A stretch of 36,708 nt of DNA, taken from Okeania sp. SIO2B3 (GTDB lineage Bacteria > Cyanobacteriota > Cyanobacteriia > Cyanobacteriales > Microcoleaceae). How positions within the stretch are numbered: the first letter of the stretch is position 1; every line of letters begins with the position of its first letter. The stretch covers positions 1 to 36,708 of the forward strand of contig NZ_JAAHGH010000079.1 of NCBI RefSeq assembly GCF_010672525.1. The letters run 5' to 3'. Below the pieces are notes generated by a model. That model saw only the letters and a list, made by a program, of their open reading frames with translations. It ran no database searches and had not been told where the DNA came from. The position numbers and the translations under genes were made by a program. This document shows, one piece after another, positions 12,926 through 25,914 of this stretch.

Positions 12926-15900
12926 ATGAACGATAATCAGACTTTAAACTTTCAAAATTATCAGACAATTGAATGTATTCATCAAGGAAAAAAATCTTTA
13001 GTTTATCGTGCTCAAAATATCTCAAACAACCAACCTGTTATCCTAAAATTATTACGCAGTGAATATCCTAGTTTTTATGAGTTAGTGCAATTTCGCCATC
13101 AATACACTATGACAAAGAATCTGAACTTACCTGGAGTTGTCCAACCCCTCGCTCTGGAAAACTATCGTAATAGTTTAATCTTAGTTATGGCGGATGAAGG
13201 TTATATTTCTATTGATGAGTATACTCAAGATAATTCTTTGAGTTTGAGTCAATGTCTAACCATTGGAATTCAACTGGCTGAAATTTTAGCCGGACTTTAT
13301 CAGCATCGTATTATTCATAAAGATATTAAACCTGCAAATATTTTAATTCATCCGGCAACCTTTGAAATTCAACTGATTGACTTTAGTATTGCTTCTTTAC
13401 TGCCAAAAGAAACCCAAATTCTGAAAAATCCTAATATTTTAGAAGGAACTCTAGCTTATATTTCTCCAGAACAAACTGGACGAATGAATCGAGGAATTGA
13501 TTATCGAACTGATTTTTATTCTTTTGGTGTCACTTTGTATGAATTATTAAGTGGAAAACTGCCCTTTGAAACAACAGAACCGATGGAATTAGTTCATTGT
13601 CATATTGCGAAAATGCCTAGTTCTTTAAGTAATAGAAAAAAAATTCCCGAAGTAGTGTCTAATATTATTCTAAAATTGATGGCCAAAAATGCTGAAGAGC
13701 GTTATCAGAGTGCTTGGGGAATTCAAAAAGATTTAGAAACCTGCTTAGAACAATTAGAAAATAATGGGAGAATTGAATTATTTGAAATTGGCAAACGAGA
13801 TATTTACGACCATTTTATTATTCCCGAAAAACTCTATGGACGACAGCAACAAGTTCAACAATTATTAGATGCTTTTGAGCGTGTTGCTAATCCTATCTCC
13901 TCTCAGCATTCTTTTCAAAAGGGAGAAATAAAAGCGAAGCATCTGCTGGTCTCCCCCTTGGTAAGGGGGACGGAAGGGGGAGCGCTCTTGGGGGGAAGTT
14001 CAGAAATGATCCTAGTTGCAGGATATTCTGGAGTGGGAAAAACAGCGGTTGTCAATGAAGTTCATAAACCTATTGTCCGGCAAAGGGGATATTTTATTAA
14101 AGGGAAATTTGACCAGTTTCAACGCAATATTCCGTTTCGTGCTTTTGTAATCGCCTTGCGGGATTTGATGGGGCAATTGTTGAGTGAAAATGATGCCAAA
14201 CTCCAGCAATGGAAAGATAAAATATTAAAAGCAGTTGGGGAAAATGGACAGGTTATTATTGAAGTTATTCCTGAACTGGAAAAGATTATTGGTTCTCAAC
14301 CTGCTGTTACTGAATTATCAGGAACTGCTGCCCAAAATCGGTTTAATTTACTGTTTCAAAAATTTATTCAGGTTTTTACCACAAAAGACCATCCATTAGT
14401 CATTTTCTTAGATGATTTACAATGGGTAGATTCAGCTTCATTGAGCCTAATTAAGCTGTTGATGAGTGATGGTGATAGTCAATATTTATTGTTAATTGGA
14501 GCTTATCGATATAATGAAGTAAATTCGGCTCATCCATTGATGTTGACATTAGATGAAATTGATAAAAATCAAGGAATTGTTAATACAATTACATTAGCAC
14601 CATTGCAACAAAATGATTTAAGCCAATTAGTAGCAGATACGTTATATTGTTCTTTACAAAAAGCCTTACCATTAACTCAAGCAGTTTATCAAAAAACTCA
14701 AGGAAATCCTTTCTTTACTACTCAATTTTTGAAAGCATTATATGAGGATAAACTGATTTATTTTAATTCAAAAGAAGGGTTTTGGGAATGCGATTTAGCC
14801 CTGGTTAAATTAGCATCAGTGAGTGAAGATGTTGTCGAATTTGTGAGCAAACGGTTGCAAAAGTTGAATCCTCTAACTCAGGATTGCCTCAAATTTGCTG
14901 CTTGTATTGGCAACCAATTTGATTTAGAAACGCTGGCAATTGTTAGACAGACTTCTGAGTTAAAAACCGCTACAGATTTATGGGTAGCATTGAAAGAAGG
15001 ATTGATTTTACCGACGACAGAAGTCTATAAGTTTTATACGATTGATACCCAAGAAATTCAATCAACAACAGAAAGTCATATTTCAGCCTGTTATAAATTC
15101 TTACATGACCGAATTCAACAAGCTGCTTATTCTTTAATTCCTGAAGATTCTAAAAAAGAAACTCACTATAAAATTGGTCAACTGTTGTTGAAGAATACGC
15201 CTGAATTTGAACGAGAAGAAAGAATTTTTGAGATTGTCAATCAATTGAATTATGGTTTTGAATTAATTGCAGCACCACAAGAAAGAGATGAACTCGCTCA
15301 ACTTAATTTAATTGCCTGTCGTAAAGCGAGAACCTCTACTGCTTATCAAGCAGGTCGTGAATATGCCAAAATTGGTTTGTCTTTACTAGGAGAAAATGCT
15401 TGGCAACATAAATATGAAATGAGTTTAGCATTCCATGATTTAGCAGCAGAATTCGCTTCACTCTGTGGTGATTTTGAGGCGATGGAAAAATTTATTGAAG
15501 CGGTTATCACTCAGGCAAAATCTGTCCTAGAACAAGTCAATGTTTACCGAATTAGAATCCAAGCAAATGCTTCTGGGAATAAACTAACAGAAGCCATTAC
15601 TATTGGCCTACAACTATTACAAAAGTTTGCTATTAACTTTCCCGAAGAACCCACACAAAAGGATATTCAACAGGGAATGGCGGAAATTGACAAACTGATT
15701 GGAGACCGGGAAATTGAAAACTTAGTTGAACTGCCAACGATGACTGATGCAGAACAAATCGCTATTGTTCAAATTGTCAATAGCATCATGGCAGTTGTTG
15801 CCATTTCTGGCTCTCCATTGTATCCATTATTGGCTGCCTCCACAGTGAAACTATCCATTCAATATGGTAATACATCAGCTTCAGCTATTGGTTATGTCTC

Positions 15901-18463
15901 TTATGGTCTGATCGCTTGTAACATAAGGCAAGATATCGAACAAGGTGTTAAGTTTGGTCAGTTGGCACTTCAAGTCGTCTCCCAACAGAATGCAAAAGCT
16001 ATCAAACCACAGTTATTCATCGTGATGGGGCTATATATATTACACCGCAAATCTCATATTAAAGAAACACTGTTACTCCTGCAAGAGGGTTATGCATTTG
16101 GCTTAGAAGTCGGAGACCGGGAAATGGCAGGATATAATGCTCAAGCTTTCTGTCTGAATTCTTTTTGGTGTGGTCAACGTCTTGCAACTTTAGAGCAAGA
16201 GACTCGCACCTACTGCAATGGGTTGCTGCAATTGAATCAATTGACAACAGCGAGTTGGTGTCGAATGTATTTGCAATCAATTTTAAATTTGCTGGGGGTG
16301 GAGGTTGGGGAGTATCCTAGTGTTTTGTCTGGAGAAGTTCTCAATGAAACTGAATTTCTATCCCAACTACTTTCTGCTCATGACAGGTTGGGATTATATT
16401 TCTTCCATATATATAAACTGATGCTTTCCTACCTATTTGGGGAAATTGAATCAGCTCAAAACCATGCAGTTGAAGTCAAATTTTATTGGATGGTTGGCGC
16501 TGGAACATTTTGTGAGTCTGTGTTTTATTTCTATGATTCTTTAACCGCTTTGGCAACTTTGAGTTCACGATCGCCAAACACATCAAAAATATTACAACAG
16601 GTAGAAGAAAACCAAGCAAAACTGCAACAGCAATGGGCAAAACACGCCCCGATGAATCACCAACATAAATATGATTTAGTAGAAGCAGAAAAACACCGAG
16701 TTATGGGCAAAAAACTAGAAGCAATGGAACTTTACGACAAAGCTATTGCAGGTGCAAAAGCAAACGAATATATCCAAGAAGAAGCGATCGCTAACGAATT
16801 AGCAGCTAAATTTTATCTAGGGTTAGGACGAAAAAAAGTTGCTCAAACCTACATGATAGAAGCTTACTATTGCTATTCTCATTGGGGAGCTAAAGCCAAA
16901 ATCAAAGACTTAGAACAACGTTATCCTGAATTATTAGCACCCATTTTAGAACAACAAAAAATTAGTCTCAATCCTTTCAAAACTATTGCCAGTTTAGGAA
17001 ATACAGATAGTTATACTCAATCCACAATTAACAACAATACTGCTGGAATTTCAGACGTACTAGACTTTACAAGTGTAATCAAAGCATCTCAAGCATTATC
17101 CAGTCAAATTGAACTGAATCAATTAATTTGTCAGTTAATGCAAGTGATGATGGAAAATGCAGGTGCTTCCAAAGGAGTTTTAATCTTATCTGAAGCTGAA
17201 CAGTTAACAGTTAAAGCCATTTCCAATCACAATGCGAATGATGAAGCGATTTCTTGCACTGAAAAATCTATACCAGTTGCAGAGAGTTTTGCTGTTCCTG
17301 TGAGTATAATTAACTTAGTCAAACGCCGTTTAGAACCACTCAATCTTGATCAAGTTTCATCTCCAACTCAATTTGCATCCGATGACTACTTCATCCAACA
17401 TCAACCCCAGAGTTTATTATGTTTACCGTTATGCAGTCGTGGAGCATTTTTAGGAATTTTATATTTAGAAAATAACTTAACCACAGGAGTATTTACTGAA
17501 CAACGAGTTGAAGTGTTGAAACTGTTGTGTTCTCAAGCAGCAATTTCTTTAGAAAATGCCCAACTCTATCAAAAATCTCAAGATTATGCTCAACAATTAG
17601 AACAGTCTTTAACAGAATTACAAGAAGCACAAGTGCAACTGGTTCAGAGTGAAAAAATGTCAGCTCTAGGGCAAATGATGTCTGGTATTACCCATGAAAT
17701 TAATAATCCATTAGGCTTTATTTCGGGTAATATTAGTCAAGTGGAGGAAGCAATACAAGATTTGCTGAATTATTTAGAAATCTATCAACAAAATCATCCA
17801 CCAGGGGAACAAGTCAAAGCTTATGCGGAAGAAATTAAGCTAGAATATGTGTTAGAAGATTTACCCCCAATGCTCGCTGATATGCAAACAGGGGTTAACC
17901 GCATTGCTGAAATTAGTAAATCAATGCGTATTTTCTCCCGTAGCGATCGAGAACAAAAAGTAGCTTTTGACTTCCATGAAGGAATTGATAGCACTTTGTT
18001 AATTCTCAAACATCGCTTGAAAGGGAATGAATTTCGTCCAGAAATTAATATTATTAAAGACTATGGAAATTTGCCACAAATTCTGGGATTTCCGGGACAG
18101 TTAAACCAAGTGTTTATGAATATTATTGCTAATGCTATTGATGTGTTTGATGAGATGAGCGAAGGGCGTTCAATGGCACAAATGAAGCAAAATCCCTATA
18201 AGATTATGTTAACAACAAATTTAGACGATGCAACTCAAATGGTAAAAATTAGCATTCAAGATAATGGTTGTGGAATGTCTGAAAAAGTGAAAAATCGAAT
18301 ATTTAACCATCTATTTACAACTAAAGCAGTAGGGAAAGGAACAGGTTTAGGACTGTCGATCGCTCGTCAAATTGTGGAAGAAAAACATGATGGAAAATTA
18401 AGTTGTGAATCACAACTGGGTAAGGGTACTGAATTTGTCATTGAAATTCCTATTGGTATTTAG
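12926..18463 (+). CDS. giant Ser/Thr kinase - AAA ATPase - GAF - histidine kinase
   Basis: This 1845-residue cytoplasmic signalling protein is of the cyanobacterial trifunctional type. Residues ~8-275 are a Hanks kinase (HKDIKPANIL near 130; LIDFSIAS near 151, where DFS replaces DFG, as I recall being usual in this family). About 300-560 is an AAA/ORC-like ATPase: Walker A GYSGVGKT near 366, Walker B LVIFLDDLQWVD near 490. A long helical TPR-like region follows, then a GAF domain (~1380-1545), and a histidine kinase with H-box SGITHEINNP (His1590), N-box NIIANAIDVF, and G boxes DNGCGMS and GTGLGL. No membrane segment is seen. GGGAG lies 9-13 nt before the ATG. Residues ~326-361, between kinase and Walker A, are encoded by an intergenic-type repeat that keeps frame. 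No response regulator lies next to it. Confidence 0.93.
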   Translation: MNDNQTLNFQNYQTIECIHQGKKSLVYRAQNISNNQPVILKLLRSEYPSFYELVQFRHQYTMTKNLNLPGVVQPLALENYRNSLILVMADEGYISIDEYTQDNSLSLSQCLTIGIQLAEILAGLYQHRIIHKDIKPANILIHPATFEIQLIDFSIASLLPKETQILKNPNILEGTLAYISPEQTGRMNRGIDYRTDFYSFGVTLYELLSGKLPFETTEPMELVHCHIAKMPSSLSNRKKIPEVVSNIILKLMAKNAEERYQSAWGIQKDLETCLEQLENNGRIELFEIGKRDIYDHFIIPEKLYGRQQQVQQLLDAFERVANPISSQHSFQKGEIKAKHLLVSPLVRGTEGGALLGGSSEMILVAGYSGVGKTAVVNEVHKPIVRQRGYFIKGKFDQFQRNIPFRAFVIALRDLMGQLLSENDAKLQQWKDKILKAVGENGQVIIEVIPELEKIIGSQPAVTELSGTAAQNRFNLLFQKFIQVFTTKDHPLVIFLDDLQWVDSASLSLIKLLMSDGDSQYLLLIGAYRYNEVNSAHPLMLTLDEIDKNQGIVNTITLAPLQQNDLSQLVADTLYCSLQKALPLTQAVYQKTQGNPFFTTQFLKALYEDKLIYFNSKEGFWECDLALVKLASVSEDVVEFVSKRLQKLNPLTQDCLKFAACIGNQFDLETLAIVRQTSELKTATDLWVALKEGLILPTTEVYKFYTIDTQEIQSTTESHISACYKFLHDRIQQAAYSLIPEDSKKETHYKIGQLLLKNTPEFEREERIFEIVNQLNYGFELIAAPQERDELAQLNLIACRKARTSTAYQAGREYAKIGLSLLGENAWQHKYEMSLAFHDLAAEFASLCGDFEAMEKFIEAVITQAKSVLEQVNVYRIRIQANASGNKLTEAITIGLQLLQKFAINFPEEPTQKDIQQGMAEIDKLIGDREIENLVELPTMTDAEQIAIVQIVNSIMAVVAISGSPLYPLLAASTVKLSIQYGNTSASAIGYVSYGLIACNIRQDIEQGVKFGQLALQVVSQQNAKAIKPQLFIVMGLYILHRKSHIKETLLLLQEGYAFGLEVGDREMAGYNAQAFCLNSFWCGQRLATLEQETRTYCNGLLQLNQLTTASWCRMYLQSILNLLGVEVGEYPSVLSGEVLNETEFLSQLLSAHDRLGLYFFHIYKLMLSYLFGEIESAQNHAVEVKFYWMVGAGTFCESVFYFYDSLTALATLSSRSPNTSKILQQVEENQAKLQQQWAKHAPMNHQHKYDLVEAEKHRVMGKKLEAMELYDKAIAGAKANEYIQEEAIANELAAKFYLGLGRKKVAQTYMIEAYYCYSHWGAKAKIKDLEQRYPELLAPILEQQKISLNPFKTIASLGNTDSYTQSTINNNTAGISDVLDFTSVIKASQALSSQIELNQLICQLMQVMMENAGASKGVLILSEAEQLTVKAISNHNANDEAISCTEKSIPVAESFAVPVSIINLVKRRLEPLNLDQVSSPTQFASDDYFIQHQPQSLLCLPLCSRGAFLGILYLENNLTTGVFTEQRVEVLKLLCSQAAISLENAQLYQKSQDYAQQLEQSLTELQEAQVQLVQSEKMSALGQMMSGITHEINNPLGFISGNISQVEEAIQDLLNYLEIYQQNHPPGEQVKAYAEEIKLEYVLEDLPPMLADMQTGVNRIAEISKSMRIFSRSDREQKVAFDFHEGIDSTLLILKHRLKGNEFRPEINIIKDYGNLPQILGFPGQLNQVFMNIIANAIDVFDEMSEGRSMAQMKQNPYKIMLTTNLDDATQMVKISIQDNGCGMSEKVKNRIFNHLFTTKAVGKGTGLGLSIARQIVEEKHDGKLSCESQLGKGTEFVIEIPIGI
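13915..14004. repeat. palindromic repeat inserted in frame within the giant kinase gene
   Basis: The stretch holds CTCCCCCTTGGTAAGGGGG and GGAAGGGGGAGCGCTCTTGG, a C-rich/G-rich hairpin typical of intergenic repeats, inside an AT-rich coding region. It encodes low-complexity residues such as SPLVRGTEGGALLGG and keeps the frame. Confidence 0.6.
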
Positions 18464-18952: not shown

Positions 18953-19900
18953 CTAAATATTCATTGGTTCTTGAATAAACTTAACGTATAGATGTTTAAA
19001 AGTAGACCTAACTATGCGTGGAATTCCAAAATCAATAGGTTTCTTAATTGTAGGTAACTGCCAATTTTCTACTTCCAATTCAGCAGGTTGTAATAATGGA
19101 AAATTAACCTTATTTAAATCAGAACAAAATCCCATTTCCTGAGCAACTGCCACTGTTGGAACTTCTGCCGGATTTACTTTGAGAATTTCTAAAAATGTTT
19201 GATCTAGAGCAAATACATCTGTCGAAGCCCCTAAAATACCTAATTTCCGAGGTTCTCCACCAATAGGACCATTACCTTCTTGAGCGATAATACTATCAAT
19301 AATAGTCAAATCTGGATTAATTGTTTTTGCTGTTTCTACCAGCATTTTTCCAAAACGGCGAGCATCTTTACCTGCCTCTAAATGCCACCAAGCTTTCATT
19401 TTTCCTGGGACACAACCAAATAAGTTTTTTACTCCCATTGTCATAGTTAGTTGAACATGGGATTTAAGCTTAGGTAAATTAATTATTACATCTGCAGCCA
19501 TTGCTTCTTTACTTAACAGCAAATGATTAAACTCTTGACTAACTGTGTCGTAACGTTTGCCATGAAACTCAACTATTGGTAAGTCAAATTCTTTGAGCAA
19601 TGATAAATAACCATTTGCTTTTGCCACACCTAGAGCACTACCAAAAGCTGGACTGTCGCCTAAAAAAGGTTTGCCTCCTGCTTTTTTGACAATTTTAGCT
19701 ACACAATAAACTATTTCTCTTCTCGTTACACATTCTTTTGTAGGGCGAGAACCTGTGAGTAAATTTGGTTTTAGTAGGACACGATCGCCAGGTTTGACAA
19801 AGGTATTAATTCCCCCTAATGGTTCTAAAAGTTCCTCTATAGATTTTTCTAATTCATTTATCTGATAGGAATTAGTCCTGATTAAACTGACAGTAGACAT
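18953..19900 (-). CDS. DUF362 family protein
   Basis: A 315-residue cytosolic protein of the DUF362 family. Conserved stretches include DRVLLKPNLLTG, GGKPFLGDSPAFG, DVIINLPKLKSH, MTMGVKNLFGCVPG and IIDSIIAQEGNGP. Many family members carry a C-terminal 2[4Fe-4S] ferredoxin domain; this one does not, so it is the short form. The biochemical role is not established. An ATG at 19990 would add 30 residues, but those come from the AGGCAAC heptamer tract (translated VACCLLPA); the family-like N-terminus begins at the ATG at 19898-19900, which I chose, although no clear ribosome-binding site precedes it. It runs toward the giant kinase gene and shares no operon with the GTPase upstream. Confidence 0.85.
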   Translation of the reverse strand: MSTVSLIRTNSYQINELEKSIEELLEPLGGINTFVKPGDRVLLKPNLLTGSRPTKECVTRREIVYCVAKIVKKAGGKPFLGDSPAFGSALGVAKANGYLSLLKEFDLPIVEFHGKRYDTVSQEFNHLLLSKEAMAADVIINLPKLKSHVQLTMTMGVKNLFGCVPGKMKAWWHLEAGKDARRFGKMLVETAKTINPDLTIIDSIIAQEGNGPIGGEPRKLGILGASTDVFALDQTFLEILKVNPAEVPTVAVAQEMGFCSDLNKVNFPLLQPAELEVENWQLPTIKKPIDFGIPRIVRSTFKHLYVKFIQEPMNI

Positions 19901-19960
19901 GATTTTTTTTATTGAACTTGTTTTAAGGGAATTTTGTAACCTTTTTATTATAGCGCTGTG

Positions 19961-19995
19961 CGCAGGCAACAGGCAACAGGCAACAGGCAACAGGG
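19961..19995. repeat. heptamer repeat AGGCAAC x4
   Basis: Four exact tandem copies of AGGCAAC, next to the palindrome GCGCTGTGCGC. STRR type. They lie just upstream of the DUF362 start. Confidence 0.9.
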
Positions 19996-20133
19996 GGAAT
20001 AAAAAACCGATATTATAAGGCTTTTAGCTATTGGACAGTTCTTGTAATTTGTAAATAGAACCAGAGCAGGAGCAAGAATTAAACATAAAAAGTAAACTGC
20101 ACCCTTTTAGCTGTTTCAGCCCAGTATATTGAA

Positions 20134-21348
20134 TCAATCTGGTGGGTTATAATCTCCCCGCTTGAGTGATTCAATAAATTCTTTCATCATCTTTATGTCT
20201 GACTTTTGTTGTACTTCTTTCTGATATTTTTTCAGTTCAGACGAAAATTTTCTTTTAAAGAATGTTGTGATTTCTTCCTTATTCATGTTGGAGTTTAAGT
20301 AATTAATTGATATTGCTTCTAAAGTAGAAGTAAATGCCAATCCGATAGCTAAAATATAACTTGCAGCTACTCCACCAGCAAGACTTTCACCTGCTATGAA
20401 AAAACCAGGAGATATTGCTGAAAATACAGTTGTAGCCACCTCTAGTATTGTTGTACCAGCGATCGCCAGTAAACCAGCAAATGCAATACTGGCAGTTGCA
20501 GCACCTTTATCAAGAAGACGATCTAGGTTATAAACTTTAGCAAGAGATGCTAGTAAAGTTGGCTGAGTTGCAATAATACTAACTGTAGTAGAACCTGGAA
20601 TAGGAACAAAAGCTGAACCAAAACATATCCCAGCTGCAGTCCCAACAAGAGAGTATGCTACTCTCCTTTTTAGTTTGACATTGACTGCCTGAGCTCTGAT
20701 AAATGCTTCTGAATATGATTCAGGAATGGCTTTTATAGATGCTTCTGTTAATTCTTTTAGACCTGAAACTGTCTTCCCTGGAATAGGATCGGCAGAAACT
20801 TCCATAATTATGAGTTGAGTATTTGCTGTCTGCTCAATGTCAGCTAAGACCTCACTCAGCTTTTTTTTAAGTTTAGAAAGCTCTTCTGGTTTAGCAATAT
20901 CACACTGACTTAACACAATGATTATAGGAATTTTTAGGCTAAGTGCTGTTTGAATCACTTCTTTATCAAAATATTCAATCCTTGTTAGTCCTGCATGAAT
21001 AAGATACCAAACAAGGTGAATACTGTCATCTACAGATTGGGTATTGGAAAGAGATTTTTCCCTAAGGAATTTTAAAGTATCTTCTAAAAAATCATCGGTT
21101 TTGCTGGCTTCATAGCCAGGAGAATCATAGAGTATGATTGGAATATCTGGATTATATGGGTTTGGATACCTTTGATAGCATTTTGTTACAGGCAACCCCA
21201 CATCTACCTTGATTTCATTGTCATTTAGCCCAAAAATAGCTTTAATCAGACCACTCTTTCCTGCACCAGTTCTACCAATTAGAGCAATGCTTGGTGGTTT
21301 GAGTCTCTCTTCTATTTTCTTCAGTTCTTGGTCTATTTCGTTGTTCAT
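20134..21348 (-). CDS. dynamin/Era-like GTPase with C-terminal membrane segments
   Basis: The 404-residue protein has a complete TRAFAC-type G domain: G1 GRTGAGKS (25-32), candidate G2 Thr55, G3 DSPG (75-78), an altered G4 SQCD (147-150; the family has N/TKxD), and G5 VSAD (184-187). After ~225 come hydrophobic, Gly/Ala-rich stretches (~231-260 and ~285-345; FVPIPGSTT recalls YcjF/DUF697-type domains), then a charged helical tail. It is probably a membrane-associated GTPase. It starts 14 nt after the stop of the ammonium transporter gene on the same strand, so the two are very likely co-transcribed. AGGAGTTTAAAC before the ATG gives a good ribosome-binding site. The partner and membrane are not known; a link to transporter regulation is inference from the operon. 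Confidence 0.85.
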   Translation of the reverse strand: MNNEIDQELKKIEERLKPPSIALIGRTGAGKSGLIKAIFGLNDNEIKVDVGLPVTKCYQRYPNPYNPDIPIILYDSPGYEASKTDDFLEDTLKFLREKSLSNTQSVDDSIHLVWYLIHAGLTRIEYFDKEVIQTALSLKIPIIIVLSQCDIAKPEELSKLKKKLSEVLADIEQTANTQLIIMEVSADPIPGKTVSGLKELTEASIKAIPESYSEAFIRAQAVNVKLKRRVAYSLVGTAAGICFGSAFVPIPGSTTVSIIATQPTLLASLAKVYNLDRLLDKGAATASIAFAGLLAIAGTTILEVATTVFSAISPGFFIAGESLAGGVAASYILAIGLAFTSTLEAISINYLNSNMNKEEITTFFKRKFSSELKKYQKEVQQKSDIKMMKEFIESLKRGDYNPPD

Positions 21349-21362
21349 GTTTAAACTCCTAT

Positions 21363-23198
21363 CTATATTATATTTTTATCCTTCAAAACCCTAATTACTC
21401 GTTTTAATTTAGATATTTCATTTGACATATATGTCAACTTTTCTACCGATTCTTGAGTAAGCTCATTATGTGTACTAGCTATAGTTCTAATATGCCATAA
21501 TTGCTTAATAACTTCGTTCATTTTTTGATTAAAGAAATTTTCTCTATCTTTTTTTGGTTGGAAAGGATATTGCTCAACCGCCCGAATAGCATTCTTAAAA
21601 TTTTCAACTAAATTCTCTTCACGAATGTTGATAACATCACCATAAAGTTTAAAATACCTTTCAACAAGTGATGAAGCTTCAACAAGCCATGACTCTAAAG
21701 CTACATCAAAAGGTATATGATTAGCTTTTATTTTCCTATTCGCTTCATCTGGAAGATTTCTTGCCTTAGCAGCTTTGTTATATGTAAAATTGCTCCTCGC
21801 ATATCTTATCGAAAGAGTCATTTTCCCTGCAAGAAATTCATTCTTTTTCTCTTTCTGAATATACTGAATGAATAGTACATCAATCCTTTGTTGAAATAGC
21901 CGAGGGGTTTCTAGATCGCCAGGAATATCATAAGCTGTCTCCTGATGATTTTCTAAATCCAAACCCCTATATATTTCAGAGTCTTCACTGCGAAGACGAT
22001 TAAGAATACCAAGCATCCCGAAAAGACCTTCATATCCATTTCTTGGTAATCTTGGTCTCCGATTAAATGCAACAAGCTTGTGCAAAAAAAACAAAAATAT
22101 TGTGAAACCCAGGAAAACAAAGATGGGAGCTAGCAGAGAAATTCCGATTTGATTTTTGGCACTATTTGGCCCCATCTCAAAAAACCTAATTATTCCTACA
22201 GCGGAACCTCCTACTACACCACAAACCAAGTGAACAATTACGGCACCAACCGGGTCATCCATTACCTCCCATGAGAATTCATTCTCAATAATGTATTTTG
22301 AGTATGAGAAAACTAGCAAACCACAAAAACCGCCAACAACAAGTGGATACAAAATATTTGCTACATCTGGTGCAGCTGTAATTCCGACTAACCCACCTAG
22401 TAAGCCATTTATTGCGATAGTTAGCCTCGGAATCTTTTTTAACCAACTCAGAAAGATTGTCACCATCATACTCACAGTTGCTGCTAAGGTTGTATTAATG
22501 GCAACAAGAGCAATTTCGTGTAAACCTTCTGGTGTCCCGACAGATAGTTGTGTACTACCCATATTAAAGCCATACCATCCGATGAGCAGTAGAAACACAC
22601 CTGCTGTCGCTAGAGGAACATTATGAGCTGGCAATCGTCTTTCTCTTGGATGTCGCGACCCTATGAGTAAAGTAGCTGCTAATGCTGCAGCTCCACCAGT
22701 TGCGTGTACGACGACTGAACCTGCGTAATCTTGAAACACTTCTAGTTTTTTATCGAGAACCTCCCACAATATGTAACCTGAGAGGGGATATATAATGCCA
22801 GAAATGAAGCCACTCATAATTAAGTAATCAGACAACTTCATTCTACCAGCGATCGCACCAGAGCATATAGTTGCAGCGGTCGCAGCAAAAGCTCCCTGGT
22901 AAAAAAATTCTACTAGGTACTCTGTATTCTTAATAATATCTGCTGGTTCTGATGTTATAATATTGAATGGATGTAAGTCCCAATTAAAACCCTTCAATAT
23001 CCAGTAACCAAAAAAGAAAAAAGCGATAAAGCTAACGCCAAAGTCAGCAAAGTTTTTGAATATGATTGAGACCGTGTGCTTGGAAGGAAGCAACCCAGCT
23101 TCTAAAAGAGCAAAACCTAGCTGCATCAAAATCACTAGGATTGCACAAAAGAGAGTAAAGACAATATTTATATATATTGGAGCAGTATCTGCTTGCAT
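21363..23198 (-). CDS. ammonium transporter (Amt) with an additional C-terminal cytosolic domain
   Basis: Residues 1-~380 are an Amt/Rh channel with 11 helices. Key positions of E. coli AmtB are all present: Phe gate F104 and F211, D158 in DYAGSVVVH, and the twin histidines H165 and H323 (VIVHLVCG). The standard cytosolic Amt tail follows (GLDLENHQETAY, 412-423), which normally ends the protein and binds PII. Here another ~185 residues continue to 611, charged and helical, with a possible coiled coil at ~570-605. This tail matches no domain I recognise; it is not a GGDEF, a histidine kinase or a PII domain. It imports ammonium and may also sense it. The gene leads a two-gene unit with the GTPase. 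An NtcA-like site and TATAAT lie just upstream, with a very short leader and no clear ribosome-binding site. Confidence 0.9.
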   Translation of the reverse strand: MQADTAPIYINIVFTLFCAILVILMQLGFALLEAGLLPSKHTVSIIFKNFADFGVSFIAFFFFGYWILKGFNWDLHPFNIITSEPADIIKNTEYLVEFFYQGAFAATAATICSGAIAGRMKLSDYLIMSGFISGIIYPLSGYILWEVLDKKLEVFQDYAGSVVVHATGGAAALAATLLIGSRHPRERRLPAHNVPLATAGVFLLLIGWYGFNMGSTQLSVGTPEGLHEIALVAINTTLAATVSMMVTIFLSWLKKIPRLTIAINGLLGGLVGITAAPDVANILYPLVVGGFCGLLVFSYSKYIIENEFSWEVMDDPVGAVIVHLVCGVVGGSAVGIIRFFEMGPNSAKNQIGISLLAPIFVFLGFTIFLFFLHKLVAFNRRPRLPRNGYEGLFGMLGILNRLRSEDSEIYRGLDLENHQETAYDIPGDLETPRLFQQRIDVLFIQYIQKEKKNEFLAGKMTLSIRYARSNFTYNKAAKARNLPDEANRKIKANHIPFDVALESWLVEASSLVERYFKLYGDVINIREENLVENFKNAIRAVEQYPFQPKKDRENFFNQKMNEVIKQLWHIRTIASTHNELTQESVEKLTYMSNEISKLKRVIRVLKDKNII

Positions 23199-23210
23199 AA
23201 AATCTGTGTA

Positions 23211-23251
23211 ATTATAATAGTAAATATAGGCGAAAAATTACTACTGGTTAC
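23211..23251 (-). promoter_or_regulatory. candidate NtcA-activated promoter of the amt-GTPase unit
   Basis: On the minus strand GTA-N8-TAA (23238-23251) differs in one base from the NtcA consensus GTAN8TAC. It is followed after 21 bp by TATAAT (23211-23216), close to the 22-24 bp of class II NtcA promoters. NtcA control fits an ammonium transporter. The predicted leader is only a few bases. Confidence 0.45.
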
Positions 23252-23270
23252 TTATTTAGTAGAGATATTC

Positions 23271-23419
23271 GGCGTTGCTGAATTGAAGTATGAATGCGCG
23301 ATTGTTTGGTTCTGGTCAAGCCCCCTAAATCCACCAAAATTGGGGGACTTTTAGAGTTTTATTCCCCCCAAAATTGGGGGGCTAGGGGGGCTTGCATCAT
23401 ACTCAGAATCAGCAACGCC
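23271..23419. mobile_element. inverted-repeat element family 3 with nested C/G-run hairpin
   Basis: The ends GGCGTTGCTGAATTGAAGTA and TACTCAGAATCAGCAACGCC form an imperfect terminal inverted repeat of about 28 bp, 149 bp overall. The middle contains two further inverted C-run/G-run repeats (CCCCCTAAATCC, CCCCCCAAAATTGGGGGG). ATATTC occurs just outside both ends (23265-23270 and 23422-23427). There is no transposase, so it is MITE-like. Confidence 0.7.
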
Positions 23420-23904
23420 ATATATTCTGATGCACCGCTATTATACTGAGTCTAGTAGCAAAGGTTTTGGTAGTTCCTACTGCCGTTCGCGTAGCACCCC
23501 CTAGGGAATCACTTAGAGCGCTGGCATCGGATTTTCGGGACATTAATTTTTTATTTTCCTACCTTACATACTTTTTTTTGGCCACCTTTAGCTTTTTTTG
23601 ACAAACAGTCCCTTACCCTGATAAAACGAGAACTCTATTATTTTTGAGATATACCGTATTTATAATATATTCCAAAAACAAAAATCGTCAACTATCGACT
23701 AATTATTCAATTGGCCATACAAATTTATTACAGCGCTACCCGCTAGGGAATAGGGAATAGGGAACAGGGAACAGCAAACTGTAAAAGGGTTTTAGGATTG
23801 AAAAAAGTCCGCGCCCAATTCTTGTAGTGCTATAGAGTCTCAATCAAGTTTGTTCAAATTAATCTAAAATTTGAGTATTTGATTACTAACAGTTAACTGA
23901 AATT
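23420..23904. other. spacer upstream of the FAD oxidoreductase
   Basis: Contains a GC-rich block near 23480-23505 and a GGGAATA/GGGAACA heptamer tract at about 23750-23776. No gene is seen. No strong ribosome-binding site precedes the ATG at 23905. Confidence 0.5.
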
Positions 23905-25914
23905 ATGCTCAAAAAAACCAAACCAATAATCAGCCTAATTCTCAGCTTATTTTCCCTATCTCCTACTATTGCACCCGCGTTAGCAGCGCCACCCCGCACC
24001 CCAGACCAAGAAGAAACCTGCGAAATACTCATCATCGGCGGCGGTTTGTCAGGAGCAGCAACTGCCTACGAATCATTATTAGCAGGACGCACCGTTTGTG
24101 TCACTGAAATTACCGACTGGGTAGGTGGTCAAATTTCTTCCCAAGGTACATCCGCTCTCGACGAACGCGGTACTCAACGCAGTCTCCTCTTTTATCCCCG
24201 TGGTTACTTAGAATTACGGGAACGCATCGAGGAAAAATACGGTAGATTAAATCCCGGTCGTTGTTGGGTAAGCGTCTCCTGTTTTATGCCTTACGATGGT
24301 CACGGTATTCTATTTCAGATGTTGCAGGATGCAGCCAAAAAAGGAGGAGGAACGTTCAAATGGTTTCCCAATACTGTTGTGAAAGAGTTAGATATTTCCA
24401 ATAATCAAATCAATAGAGCGATCGCTATCCAACACCAACCAGCAGCAGGCACCCCACCCATCAACACTGAACCCCTATCTCAAATCATCGAAGATGCTTA
24501 CCGTTACCAAAACTCAGCGCGTTTCGACAAAACCATAATTCAGTTTGTACCCCAACCTTCCCCAGAAAAAACAGGTGGTGCTGACTGGTATGTTGTCGAA
24601 GCAACCGAAACCGGAGAAATTATTGCTCTGGCAGATGTTCCCTATCGTCTCGGTATCGACCCCCAAAGCTATCTTGACCCCTCATCTCCCGTTGACACTA
24701 GAGACTCCTATTGCACTCAAGGTTTTACCTACACCTTCGCTATGGAAGCAACCGAAACACCTCAAACCCATGTCGAACCGACCTTTTATTCTCAGTATGC
24801 TCCCTACTATAGTTATGAATTATCAAGATTAGCTAGTTTCCCTCTAGTTTTCACCTATCGTCAAATTTGGTCAGTGAAACCAGACGCACCGCAACCAGGA
24901 GACTATAAAAAACGAACAATTTTTCCCGGCGATATTTCCATGCAAAATTGGACTTGGGGTAATGACTACCGTCCTGGAAACCGTGAAGATAATTTGATTT
25001 ACAGTCGAAACCAACTGCAAGCTACAGGTCAACTGCGACCGGGTGGTTGGATGGGTGGTTTGCGTGCGGAAACTCTCCGTCGGGGTGAGGAAAATGCTCT
25101 CGGTTATTTCCATTGGTTAGTTGAGGGAACTACTGACTCTCAGTTGGGAGCGGGGGTAAAGGAAAAACATCCCAATAATCGTTTTTTGAGTGGGTTTGAT
25201 GCACCGATGGGAACAGCTCACGGGTTGTCAAAATATCCTTATATGCGAGAGGGGCGACGTATTATTGGTCGTCGGGGAAAGACTCATCCAGGAGGTTTTA
25301 CCGTTGCAGAAGTTGATATTGCTAAAAAGAATTTTCGGGATAATTTTTATCTGCAAAATTTAGCACCGGATACATTACATTATTTGTGGGGAGCTGTTTC
25401 TGCTTTTGTACCTCCAGATGCACAAATTAACTCAATGCAAGAAATGCCTCAACGTGCTCGGGCGACTGTTTTTCCTGATAGTGTGGGTATTGGTCATTAT
25501 GCAATTGATTTTCATCCTTGCATGACTAAAAGTCCCGCAGAAGCACCTGGTAATTCTGAACGAGCAGGTATTAGGAGAGGTCAAGGTTCTGCTTATCCTT
25601 TTCAAATTCCTTTACGGGCAATGATCCCTCAAAAAATTGATAATTTGTTGGTAGCGGGAAAAACTATTGCTACAAGTTATATTGCTGCTGCTGCTTATCG
25701 GGTTCATTCTTTTGAATGGTCTGCTGGTGCTGCTGCTGGTACAACAATTGATTTTGCTTTGGAAAGGGGTATTTTTCCTTATGAATTGATTGATGATATG
25801 CCTTCTAAGGAATGGGAATTGGAGGTTTTACAAGGTCGTTTACAGGAAAATGGTAATCCGACTGCTTTTCCTGACACTTCGATTTTTAATAATACTTGGG
25901 ATGAATGGAAATAG
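23905..25914 (+). CDS. exported FAD-dependent oxidoreductase
   Basis: This 669-residue protein has a Sec signal peptide (residues 1-27, cleavage near APALA|APP) and, directly after it, an FAD-binding Rossmann motif ILIIGGGLSGAATA (GGGLSG at 45-50). Near the C-terminus is the second FAD-contacting segment (KIDNLLVAGKTIATSYIAAA, then VHSFEWSAGAAAGT). These fit the FAD_oxidored family. The mature protein would act in the periplasm or lumen; the substrate is unknown. Its 5' half is richer in C/G and differs from the AT-rich 3' half in codon choice, possibly a mosaic origin. It has no operon partner: the gene is isolated by 700 bp on the left and 900 bp on the right. Confidence 0.87.
   Translation: MLKKTKPIISLILSLFSLSPTIAPALAAPPRTPDQEETCEILIIGGGLSGAATAYESLLAGRTVCVTEITDWVGGQISSQGTSALDERGTQRSLLFYPRGYLELRERIEEKYGRLNPGRCWVSVSCFMPYDGHGILFQMLQDAAKKGGGTFKWFPNTVVKELDISNNQINRAIAIQHQPAAGTPPINTEPLSQIIEDAYRYQNSARFDKTIIQFVPQPSPEKTGGADWYVVEATETGEIIALADVPYRLGIDPQSYLDPSSPVDTRDSYCTQGFTYTFAMEATETPQTHVEPTFYSQYAPYYSYELSRLASFPLVFTYRQIWSVKPDAPQPGDYKKRTIFPGDISMQNWTWGNDYRPGNREDNLIYSRNQLQATGQLRPGGWMGGLRAETLRRGEENALGYFHWLVEGTTDSQLGAGVKEKHPNNRFLSGFDAPMGTAHGLSKYPYMREGRRIIGRRGKTHPGGFTVAEVDIAKKNFRDNFYLQNLAPDTLHYLWGAVSAFVPPDAQINSMQEMPQRARATVFPDSVGIGHYAIDFHPCMTKSPAEAPGNSERAGIRRGQGSAYPFQIPLRAMIPQKIDNLLVAGKTIATSYIAAAAYRVHSFEWSAGAAAGTTIDFALERGIFPYELIDDMPSKEWELEVLQGRLQENGNPTAFPDTSIFNNTWDEWK

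What the first reader, a model, noticed from the sequence alone, without database searches (positions are those of the whole stretch)
20134..23251. Ammonium transporter with an unknown cytosolic domain paired with a membrane GTPase
The Amt keeps every pore residue (F104, F211, D158, H165, H323) and the normal tail (GLDLENHQETAY), then continues for ~185 helical residues I cannot assign. The next gene, 14 nt away on the same strand, is a TRAFAC GTPase with its own membrane segments. Amt fusions to histidine kinases or GGDEF domains are known signalling transceptors; this fusion with a GTPase partner is not one I know of. I infer ammonium-dependent control of, or by, the GTPase, perhaps on membrane traffic or transporter clustering.
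Basis: partly seen in the sequence, partly recalled or inferred. Interest (0 to 1): 0.8.

Follow-up and report, generated by a model that had tools for sequence, protein, structure and literature searches.

The report
Sensor-type ammonium protein with GTPase partner
In some species of the cyanobacterium Okeania, an ammonium-transporter-like membrane protein whose core resembles ammonium sensors carries a new internal tail and sits in one gene pair with a membrane GTPase, which suggests a new way for bacteria to respond to ammonium but has not been tested.

Summary
A 611-residue Amt (21363-23198, minus) keeps its pore and normal Amt tail, then runs on for 188 residues; a 404-residue P-loop GTPase with a hydrophobic helical half follows 14 nt on. 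The tail matches no family convincingly and was found only in Okeania: 3 of 5 genus genomes, with no convincing hit outside the own genome in a 386-genome cyanobacterial sample. In those 3 the GTPase gene follows at 10-14 nt; no other locus tested shows the pairing.

New: the Amt core carries the Q..D pair of the intramembrane ammonium site published for the sensor Ks-Amt5. Q..D occurs in 11 of 11 C-terminally extended cyanobacterial Amts fetched and in 6 of 50 unextended ones. In the tree the tail is a second origin of an extension. The last ~48 tail residues are under strong purifying selection; the rest of the pair changes fast.

Against: the GTPase is truncated in one of three species and has lost its G3 motif in another, while the Amt stays whole; closeness to sensor structures in the PDB is shared by the ordinary Amt.

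Best reading: an ammonium receptor whose tail acts on or with the GTPase. New variant of a known kind; function inferred.

The parts
21930..23198 (-). Amt core, residues 1-423: complete pore (F104, W145, D157, H165, F211, S215, H323) and normal Amt C-terminal motif GLDLENHQETAY
   Evidence: Pfam PF00909 E 1.6e-74; TIGR00836 full-length model match below cut-off; alignment with orthologues and PDB chains
23040..23123 (-). Helix 1-2 part of the sensor-type intramembrane site: Q26, E33, N49, D52 (Ks-Amt5 Q24, E31, N47, D50); F53 replaces T51
   Evidence: Alignment to 6eu6; ligand list in PMC5764959 section 8; Q..D in 11 of 11 extended and 6 of 50 unextended cyanobacterial Amts
22860..22871 (-). 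Helix 4 part of that site: T110 and S113 (Ks-Amt5 T109, T112); these letters are shared by the unextended cyanobacterial Amts too
21363..21929 (-). Cytosolic tail, residues 424-611 plus stop; found only in Okeania, no known family
   Evidence: No Pfam or NCBIfam family at cut-off; no convincing PDB match; relatives only in Okeania
21402..21545 (-). Most constrained block of the tail, residues 552-599, ending THNELTQESVEKLTYMSNEISKLK
   Evidence: dN/dS 0.07-0.20 in three pairs, against 0.57-0.72 for residues 424-551; alignment A1
21349..21362 (-). 14-nt junction with Shine-Dalgarno-like AGGAG; 10 nt in the two orthologous loci
   Evidence: Sequence; L008 and L009 ORFs and junctions
20134..21348 (-). 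Membrane GTPase, 404 aa: P-loop G domain (about 1-215) and hydrophobic helical C-terminal half related to DUF697-type GTPases
   Evidence: PF01926 E 3.1e-8; hydropathy; alignment A4 of 17 proteins, DUF697 found in 8 of 17 members though not in this one; model pLDDT 70.5, Foldseek best matches IRG proteins
23905..25914 (+). Upstream flank: FAD-dependent oxidoreductase gene, present in 5 of 5 Okeania genomes; marks one side of the variable slot
   Evidence: PF12831 E 7.5e-47
18953..19990 (-). Downstream flank: DUF362 gene, on the other side of the slot
   Evidence: PF04015 E 1.7e-57; near-identical copies in L009, L088 and L089

Best explanation
This is an ammonium receptor module of the Amt-transceptor kind with a new output. 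Shown: the Amt core keeps the pore plus the Q, E, N, D and T residues of the intramembrane ammonium site published for the sensor Ks-Amt5. It differs from the 498-aa Amt of the same genome at the two positions (Q..D against N..V) that track C-terminal extension in this sample. It carries a soluble, lineage-specific tail whose last ~48 residues are strongly conserved. It forms a two-gene unit with a P-loop GTPase that has its own hydrophobic helical half. Inferred: ammonium enters the selectivity filter and occupies the intramembrane site; the resulting change passes through the Amt C-terminus into the tail under the trimer; and the conserved end of the tail binds the GTPase at the membrane and changes its nucleotide or assembly state. 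What the GTPase then acts on is unknown.
For: Q26, E33, N49, D52, T110, S113 in 3 of 3 orthologues, and Q..D in 7 of 7 long Amt fusions of the first set. Q..D in 11 of 11 extended against 6 of 50 unextended Amts (one gene stands twice among the 50, L058 = L117). In the quick tree all 21 Q..D rows form one side of a branch (SH-aLRT 97) and extension needs two changes. The same genome has a separate 498-aa Amt of the common N..V type and an Amt-PAS-cyclase fusion, so the tail-Amt is not the only Amt. Gene pair 3 of 3 with 10-14 nt spacing. Constraint at the tail end.
Against: The GTPase is truncated in O. hirsuta and lacks G3 D75/G78 in SIO1I7 while the Amt is intact. The three pairs are orthologous, so adjacency is one event, not three. 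The tail-Amt's best PDB matches are Ks-Amt5 and 8qj3, but a control with the genome's N..V Amt gives the same order, so that ranking says nothing. T51 is F, and two of three Ks-Amt5 pore-plugging residues are absent (L32, L36), so transport is not excluded. Q..D also occurs in unextended Amts, two of them beside a gene of PII type (L033, L034). The careful tree does not show the Q..D rows as one group against the outgroup, so Q..D may be old rather than a mark of sensing. High dN/dS fits relaxed constraint too. No tail fold could be modelled.
Confidence: 0.42

Rival explanations
1. A sensor-type Amt whose tail signals to something else (for example by self-assembly or another partner); the GTPase is a passenger or a second, independent membrane gene that is already decaying.
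For: GTPase truncated in 1 of 3 and without G3 in another, with the tail's end block still at dN/dS 0.07-0.20. GTPase residues 281-404 reach dN/dS 1.4 in the one pair where they can be compared (window and SIO1I7). GTPases of this family elsewhere stand alone, in tandem, or beside unrelated genes in the loci displayed. The slot is a gene-exchange site.
Against: The pair has stayed together in 3 of 3 genomes with one ribosome-binding arrangement; GTPase residues 216-280 stay 84.6% identical even in the copy without G3.
Confidence: 0.29
2. An accessory, fast-evolving conflict-type module: an IRG/DUF697-like membrane GTPase uses an ammonium-channel protein as its receptor or membrane effector, and the slot is a hot spot for such modules.
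For: Whole-gene or domain dN/dS of the pair 0.29-0.71 against 0.05-0.10 for the flanking oxidoreductase at similar dS and 0.08-0.19 for the 498-aa Amt; 1.4 for GTPase residues 281-404 in one pair. Present in 3 of 5 genomes; the same slot holds other genes in the remaining two and a PIN-domain gene beside the pair in one. GTPase relatives on small plasmids. Best structural matches are immunity-related GTPases. Another Okeania genome has a Q..D Amt overlapping a gene for a different unassigned protein.
Against: PADLOC matches to LeoBC and LeoA cover only residues 2-93 of the GTPase. I recognise no defence gene among the window ORFs beside the pair (by eye; those ORFs were not run against PADLOC). 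No phage or viral-contig relatives. Relaxed constraint explains the dN/dS as well.
Confidence: 0.15
3. An ordinary secondary ammonium transporter with a lineage-specific tail next to an unrelated GTPase.
For: Every pore residue is kept; the path is not plugged as in Ks-Amt5 (L32, L36). Q..D is also found in two unextended Amts beside a PII-type gene.
Against: Q..D instead of the N..V of most unextended cyanobacterial Amts in the sample; the tail end is conserved far more than a neutral tail would be; no GTAN8TAC NtcA-type box in the 600 bp upstream of the gene in 3 of 3 loci.
Confidence: 0.14

Closest known systems
Ks-Amt5, ammonium sensor histidine kinase of Kuenenia stuttgartiensis (PDB 6eu6; PMC5764959)
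   Same: Amt core with intact filter, Phe gate and His pair; Q, E, N, D, T of the intramembrane ammonium site; cytosolic C-terminal extension
   Different: No histidine kinase; T51 is F and T112 is S; pore plug residues Y30 and F34 are L; output would go through an unknown tail and a separately encoded GTPase
644/661-residue Amt of PDB 8qj3/8qj4/8qpf (a diguanylate-cyclase sensor Amt as recalled; the call gives only 'Ammonium transporter')
   Same: The same letters as here at all seven site positions; a C-terminal extension of roughly 240 residues
   Different: The extension here shows no cyclase or other family
Okeania Amt-PAS-class III cyclase fusion (L111, 1208 aa)
   Same: Same genome, Q..D Amt core, C-terminal output
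   Different: Known output domains; separate group in the trees, so the tail-Amt is a separate origin of extension
DUF697-type membrane GTPases
   Same: P-loop GTPase plus hydrophobic helical half, alignable over the whole length; DUF697 in 8 of 17 aligned members
   Different: DUF697 is not among the matches of this protein up to E 10; relatives tested are not paired with Amt
Immunity-related GTPases (IRG, e.g. Irga6)
   Same: Best Foldseek matches (4lv5 E 3.7e-6); weak IIGP match
   Different: TM-score only 0.39, IIGP below its Pfam cut-off (21.6 of 24 bits); the membrane half was modelled poorly

Membership tests
Amt/Rh ammonium transporter family (PF00909) | Match to the family model, with filter, Phe gate and His pair | tested here: met
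   251.5 bits against a cut-off of 23.2; residues present
Standalone cyanobacterial Amt | N..V at the two diagnostic positions and no C-terminal extension, as in most of the 50 unextended Amts of the sample | tested here: not met
   Q..D and a 188-residue extension
NCBI subfamily TIGR00836 (amt) | Score at or above the curated cut-off of 343.3 bits | tested here: not met
   275 bits. Controls pass: own 498-aa Amt 432.1, own cyclase fusion 409.4, L018 378.3; so this shows divergence and does not tell sensor from transporter
Ks-Amt5-type sensor Amt | Seven ligand residues of the intramembrane ammonium site | tested here: inconclusive
   Five identical (Q26, E33, N49, D52, T110), one conservative (S113), one changed (F53)
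Ks-Amt5-type sensor Amt | Pore-plugging F27, Y30, F34 | tested here: not met
   F29, L32, L36: one of three, and F29 is shared by the other cyanobacterial Amts
Ks-Amt5-type sensor Amt | Fused histidine kinase | tested here: not met
   No kinase family in the tail
Ks-Amt5-type sensor Amt | Binds but does not efficiently translocate ammonium | not testable with these tools
   Needs purified protein; shown for Ks-Amt5 in PMC5764959 (section 7)
P-loop TRAFAC GTPase | G1 and G3 motifs and a G-domain family match | tested here: met
   GRTGAGKS, DSPG; PF01926 34.2 bits against 21.9. In the SIO1I7 orthologue G3 is lost and PF01926 is just under the cut-off (21.1)
DUF697-type GTPase | Match to PF05128 | tested here: inconclusive
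   No match in this protein; 8 of 17 aligned members match
IRG (PF05049) | Match above the family cut-off | tested here: not met
   21.6 bits against 24; structural resemblance only
LeoABC defence GTPases (PADLOC) | Full-length match to a Leo protein | tested here: not met
   LeoBC match covers residues 2-93 of 404; partner genes were not searched for

The most novel reading that the evidence does not exclude
A sensor-type Amt has been recruited, with a newly evolved cytosolic adaptor domain, as the ammonium receptor of an immunity-like membrane GTPase: an ammonium-gated GTPase switch in the bacterial membrane, evolving under conflict-like pressure. More broadly, Q..D Amts would be a general receptor chassis wired to swapped-in outputs either by fusion or by an adjacent gene.
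Probability: 0.2. Interest if true: 0.8.

Novelty: new variant of a known kind. Interest (0 to 1): 0.55.

Why it matters
The outputs I know of for sensing Amts are enzymes in the same chain: a histidine kinase in Ks-Amt5 (PMC5764959), a nucleotide cyclase in Okeania's own fusion. A helical adaptor plus a separate membrane GTPase would be a new output. The Q..D pair also offers a sequence test for telling receptor Amts from transporters; in this sample it tracks C-terminal extension (11 of 11 against 6 of 50) and can be checked by mutation. If coupling is shown, it would tie ammonium to a GTPase at the bacterial membrane.

Tried and rejected
Tail as a known domain: Pfam, NCBIfam and PDB profile searches gave nothing convincing. 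The best Pfam hit, GAUT_1 at E 0.0045, is below its cut-off; the PDB hit 4d49 at 8.7e-6 rests on 25 positions of a designed repeat protein, with no stretch passing on its own. AlphaFold of the tail failed (pLDDT 44.8, 3 rows), so no fold search was run on it.

Tail relatives elsewhere: the 11 genomes other than the own one with a profile hit at E<=0.1 (best 8.7e-4) show short matches, four rows with stops inside, 9 of the 11 genomes in one family of small genomes; judged chance. Viral contigs: none. Similarity to other Amt extensions and to the L018 partner: none below E 0.7.

Closeness to sensor structures as evidence: dropped. The tail-Amt matches Ks-Amt5 and 8qj3 best, but the own N..V Amt does so too (1.8e-76 and 7e-74 against 3e-49 for AmtB). 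The low TIGR00836 score was dropped as a sign of sensing as well, since the cyclase fusion passes.

Nitrogen regulation by NtcA (box recalled): no GTAN8TAC upstream in 3 of 3 loci; the 3 sites in the window are fewer than chance gives (mean 5.4).

Horizontal acquisition from composition: tail GC 0.316 and GTPase 0.364 against window 0.376, not decisive.

Phylogenetic correction of the Q..D/extension link: only 2 independent pairs, no power. The Fisher p of 3e-8 counts related rows, and one gene twice, and is no significance claim. The join of the tail-Amt with L018 is a long-branch pair and may be false.

The 272-aa partner of L018 looked TIR-like by eye; Pfam, PADLOC and PDB gave no clear support. 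0 of 386 genomes hold a relative, in a list that did not show its own genome ringing.
Full report
WHAT IS THERE. The window is contig 227 of a 10.0-Mb cyanobacterial genome that falls in the genus of Okeania: two of its four genus mates in the held set have contigs of the same lengths as the named records NZ_RCBY01000001 (O. hirsuta) and JAAHGF010000008 (Okeania sp. SIO1I7). On the minus strand lie an Amt gene of 611 codons (21363-23198) and, 14 nt on, a GTPase gene of 404 codons (20134-21348) with AGGAG 7 nt before its ATG. The Amt core matches PF00909 (E 1.6e-74) and TIGR00836 end to end but below cut-off. After the canonical tail ending at residue 423, 188 more residues follow, with no hydrophobic segment and no known family.

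HOW WIDESPREAD. The tail was found in 1 of 243 genomes of the order sample (the window's own). In 386 genomes of the phylum sample only the own genome is convincing; the other 11 genomes with hits at E<=0.1 show short, weak matches. A pattern-based scan of the species-genome collection (84,980 species by the tool's description; it finds close relatives only) gave 2 loci, both Okeania. In the genus, 3 of 5 genomes hold the extended Amt. In all three the GTPase gene follows directly. Among 36 loci fetched around GTPase relatives (some overlapping), an Amt core or tail is present in three, all the Okeania pair. Among 63 loci fetched around Amt relatives, which do not include L008 and L009, one has the GTPase, the window's own. 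Flanks were mostly 1.5 kb.

THE SITE. The pair sits between a FAD-dependent oxidoreductase gene present in 5 of 5 Okeania genomes and a DUF362 gene. The two genomes without the pair hold other genes in that slot: an unassigned 432-aa protein, and an acyltransferase. SIO1I7 carries a PIN-domain gene there beside the pair. So it is an accessory pair at a variable site.

RATE OF CHANGE. By a simple Nei-Gojobori script on three orthologues, dN/dS is 0.29-0.46 for the Amt core, 0.47-0.71 for the tail and 0.47-0.69 for the GTPase, against 0.05-0.10 for the flanking oxidoreductase at similar dS and 0.065 for DUF362 in one pair at lower dS. The last 124 residues of the GTPase stand at 1.4 between window and SIO1I7; O. 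hirsuta lacks them. The 498-aa Amt of the same five genomes gives 0.08-0.19 in ten pairs, and the Amt-cyclase fusion, over the part held, 0.16-0.35 in ten pairs. Within the tail, residues 552-599 are at 0.07-0.20 and residues 424-551 at 0.57-0.72. So the tail is a real, selected domain with a conserved end, inside a fast-changing pair. Relaxed constraint, positive selection at some sites and new function cannot be told apart with three sequences.

IS THE CORE OF THE SIGNALLING TYPE? Ks-Amt5 binds two ammonium ions inside the membrane through Q24, E31, N47, D50, T51, T109 and T112 and does not efficiently translocate them (PMC5764959, sections 7 and 8 read). The tail-Amt has Q, E, N, D, F, T, S at these positions, the same letters as 8qj3 and as Okeania's own Amt fusion. 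E, N, T and S are shared by all 61 cyanobacterial Amts tabulated; Q and D are what differ. Of these 61 (the three tail-Amts and the PDB chains not counted), 11 have at least 80 residues after the canonical tail and 11 of 11 have Q..D. Of the other 50 (one gene stands twice, L058 = L117), 6 have Q..D. One of the six is a fragment of a broken gene (L130), one overlaps a downstream gene for an unassigned protein (L018), and two have a divergently placed gene beside them (L031, with receiver, HisKA and HATPase domains; L032 by its similar frame). The last two lie beside a P-II gene, confirmed for L033 and read by eye for L034. The sample leans toward relatives of the window protein because of how it was drawn. 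In the quick tree all 21 Q..D rows form one side of a branch (SH-aLRT 97) and extension needs two changes: one in the group with Ks-Amt5, 8qj3 and the fusions, one in the tail-Amt lineage, which sits on a long branch near L018 and L031/L032. The careful tree of 48 rows sets the N..V Amts apart but leaves the Q..D rows unresolved against the outgroup, so Q..D may be an older state. The position next to L018 is flagged as a possible long-branch artefact.

A CONTROL THAT WENT AGAINST ME. The tail-Amt matches the sensors Ks-Amt5 and 8qj3 best in the PDB, which I first took as support. The genome's own N..V Amt shows the same order with much better scores. The ranking therefore carries no weight. 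The tail-Amt's low TIGR00836 score marks divergence, since the cyclase fusion and L018 both pass that cut-off.

THE GTPASE. It has G1 and G3, an unusual G4 (SQCD), and a hydrophobic helical second half. It aligns over its length with relatives, and 8 of the 17 aligned proteins match DUF697. A model of middling quality (pLDDT 70.5, residues 281-321 mostly below 50) matches immunity-related GTPases best, at TM 0.39. Matches at E<=1e-10 occur in 18 of 386 cyanobacterial genomes, the own one included, and 55 plasmid records hold a match at E<=1e-5; two plasmids were looked at, one with two GTPase-named genes in a row. Tandem copies also occur in another Okeania genome. No phage record matched.

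EVIDENCE AGAINST A STRICT PARTNERSHIP. In O. hirsuta the GTPase reading frame ends at 295 codons, alignment being lost after about 280. In SIO1I7 the frame is whole but both G3 residues are changed (D75, G78). The Amt and its tail are intact in both. A recent loss, a nucleotide-independent role, or no coupling at all would each explain this.

LITERATURE. A review calls Ks-Amt5 the first characterised of its kind and notes that other natural combinations of Amt with other domains have been observed (PMC10433425, section 16 read; the word GTPase does not occur in its main text). Searches for Amt with GTPase or conflict systems showed no description of this pairing in the papers listed (listings only; passages of PMC7159879). 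The library lacks most subscription papers.

VERDICT. A real, conserved, Okeania-specific gene pair built on an Amt with sensor-type residues. The sensor role is the better-supported half; control of or by the GTPase is an inference from gene order.

Noticed in passing
L111:1683-5309 (G000:C135): The same genome has a 1208-residue Amt fused to PAS domains and a class III nucleotide cyclase, with the Q..D pair.
   Followed up: partly
L091 (= L018), 210-2502, genome G246: A Q..D Amt overlaps by up to 20 nt a downstream gene for a 272-aa protein with a helical first half and a TIR-like look (by eye only); a possible second Amt-plus-partner module.
   Followed up: partly
L125, L126, L131: Other cyanobacterial Amts carry extensions of about 120-430 residues after the canonical tail; that of L131 looks like a PP2C phosphatase and those of L125/L126 HAMP-like (by eye, no family call).
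   Followed up: no
L031:1402-4113 and L032: Unextended Q..D Amts lie divergently beside a gene with receiver, HisKA and HATPase domains (Pfam run on L031 only).
   Followed up: partly
window 19991-23904 against L088 and L089: The slot between the FAD-oxidoreductase and DUF362 genes is a gene-exchange site among five Okeania genomes.
   Followed up: partly
L090:3834-6697 (G246:C105): Tandem GTPases of the same family are followed by a short gene for a protein with one likely membrane segment and a repeated coiled coil (by eye), another GTPase next to a membrane-anchored helical protein.
   Followed up: no
window 12926-18463: 1845-residue protein with protein kinase, AAA, GAF and histidine-kinase ATPase domains in one chain.
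   Followed up: no
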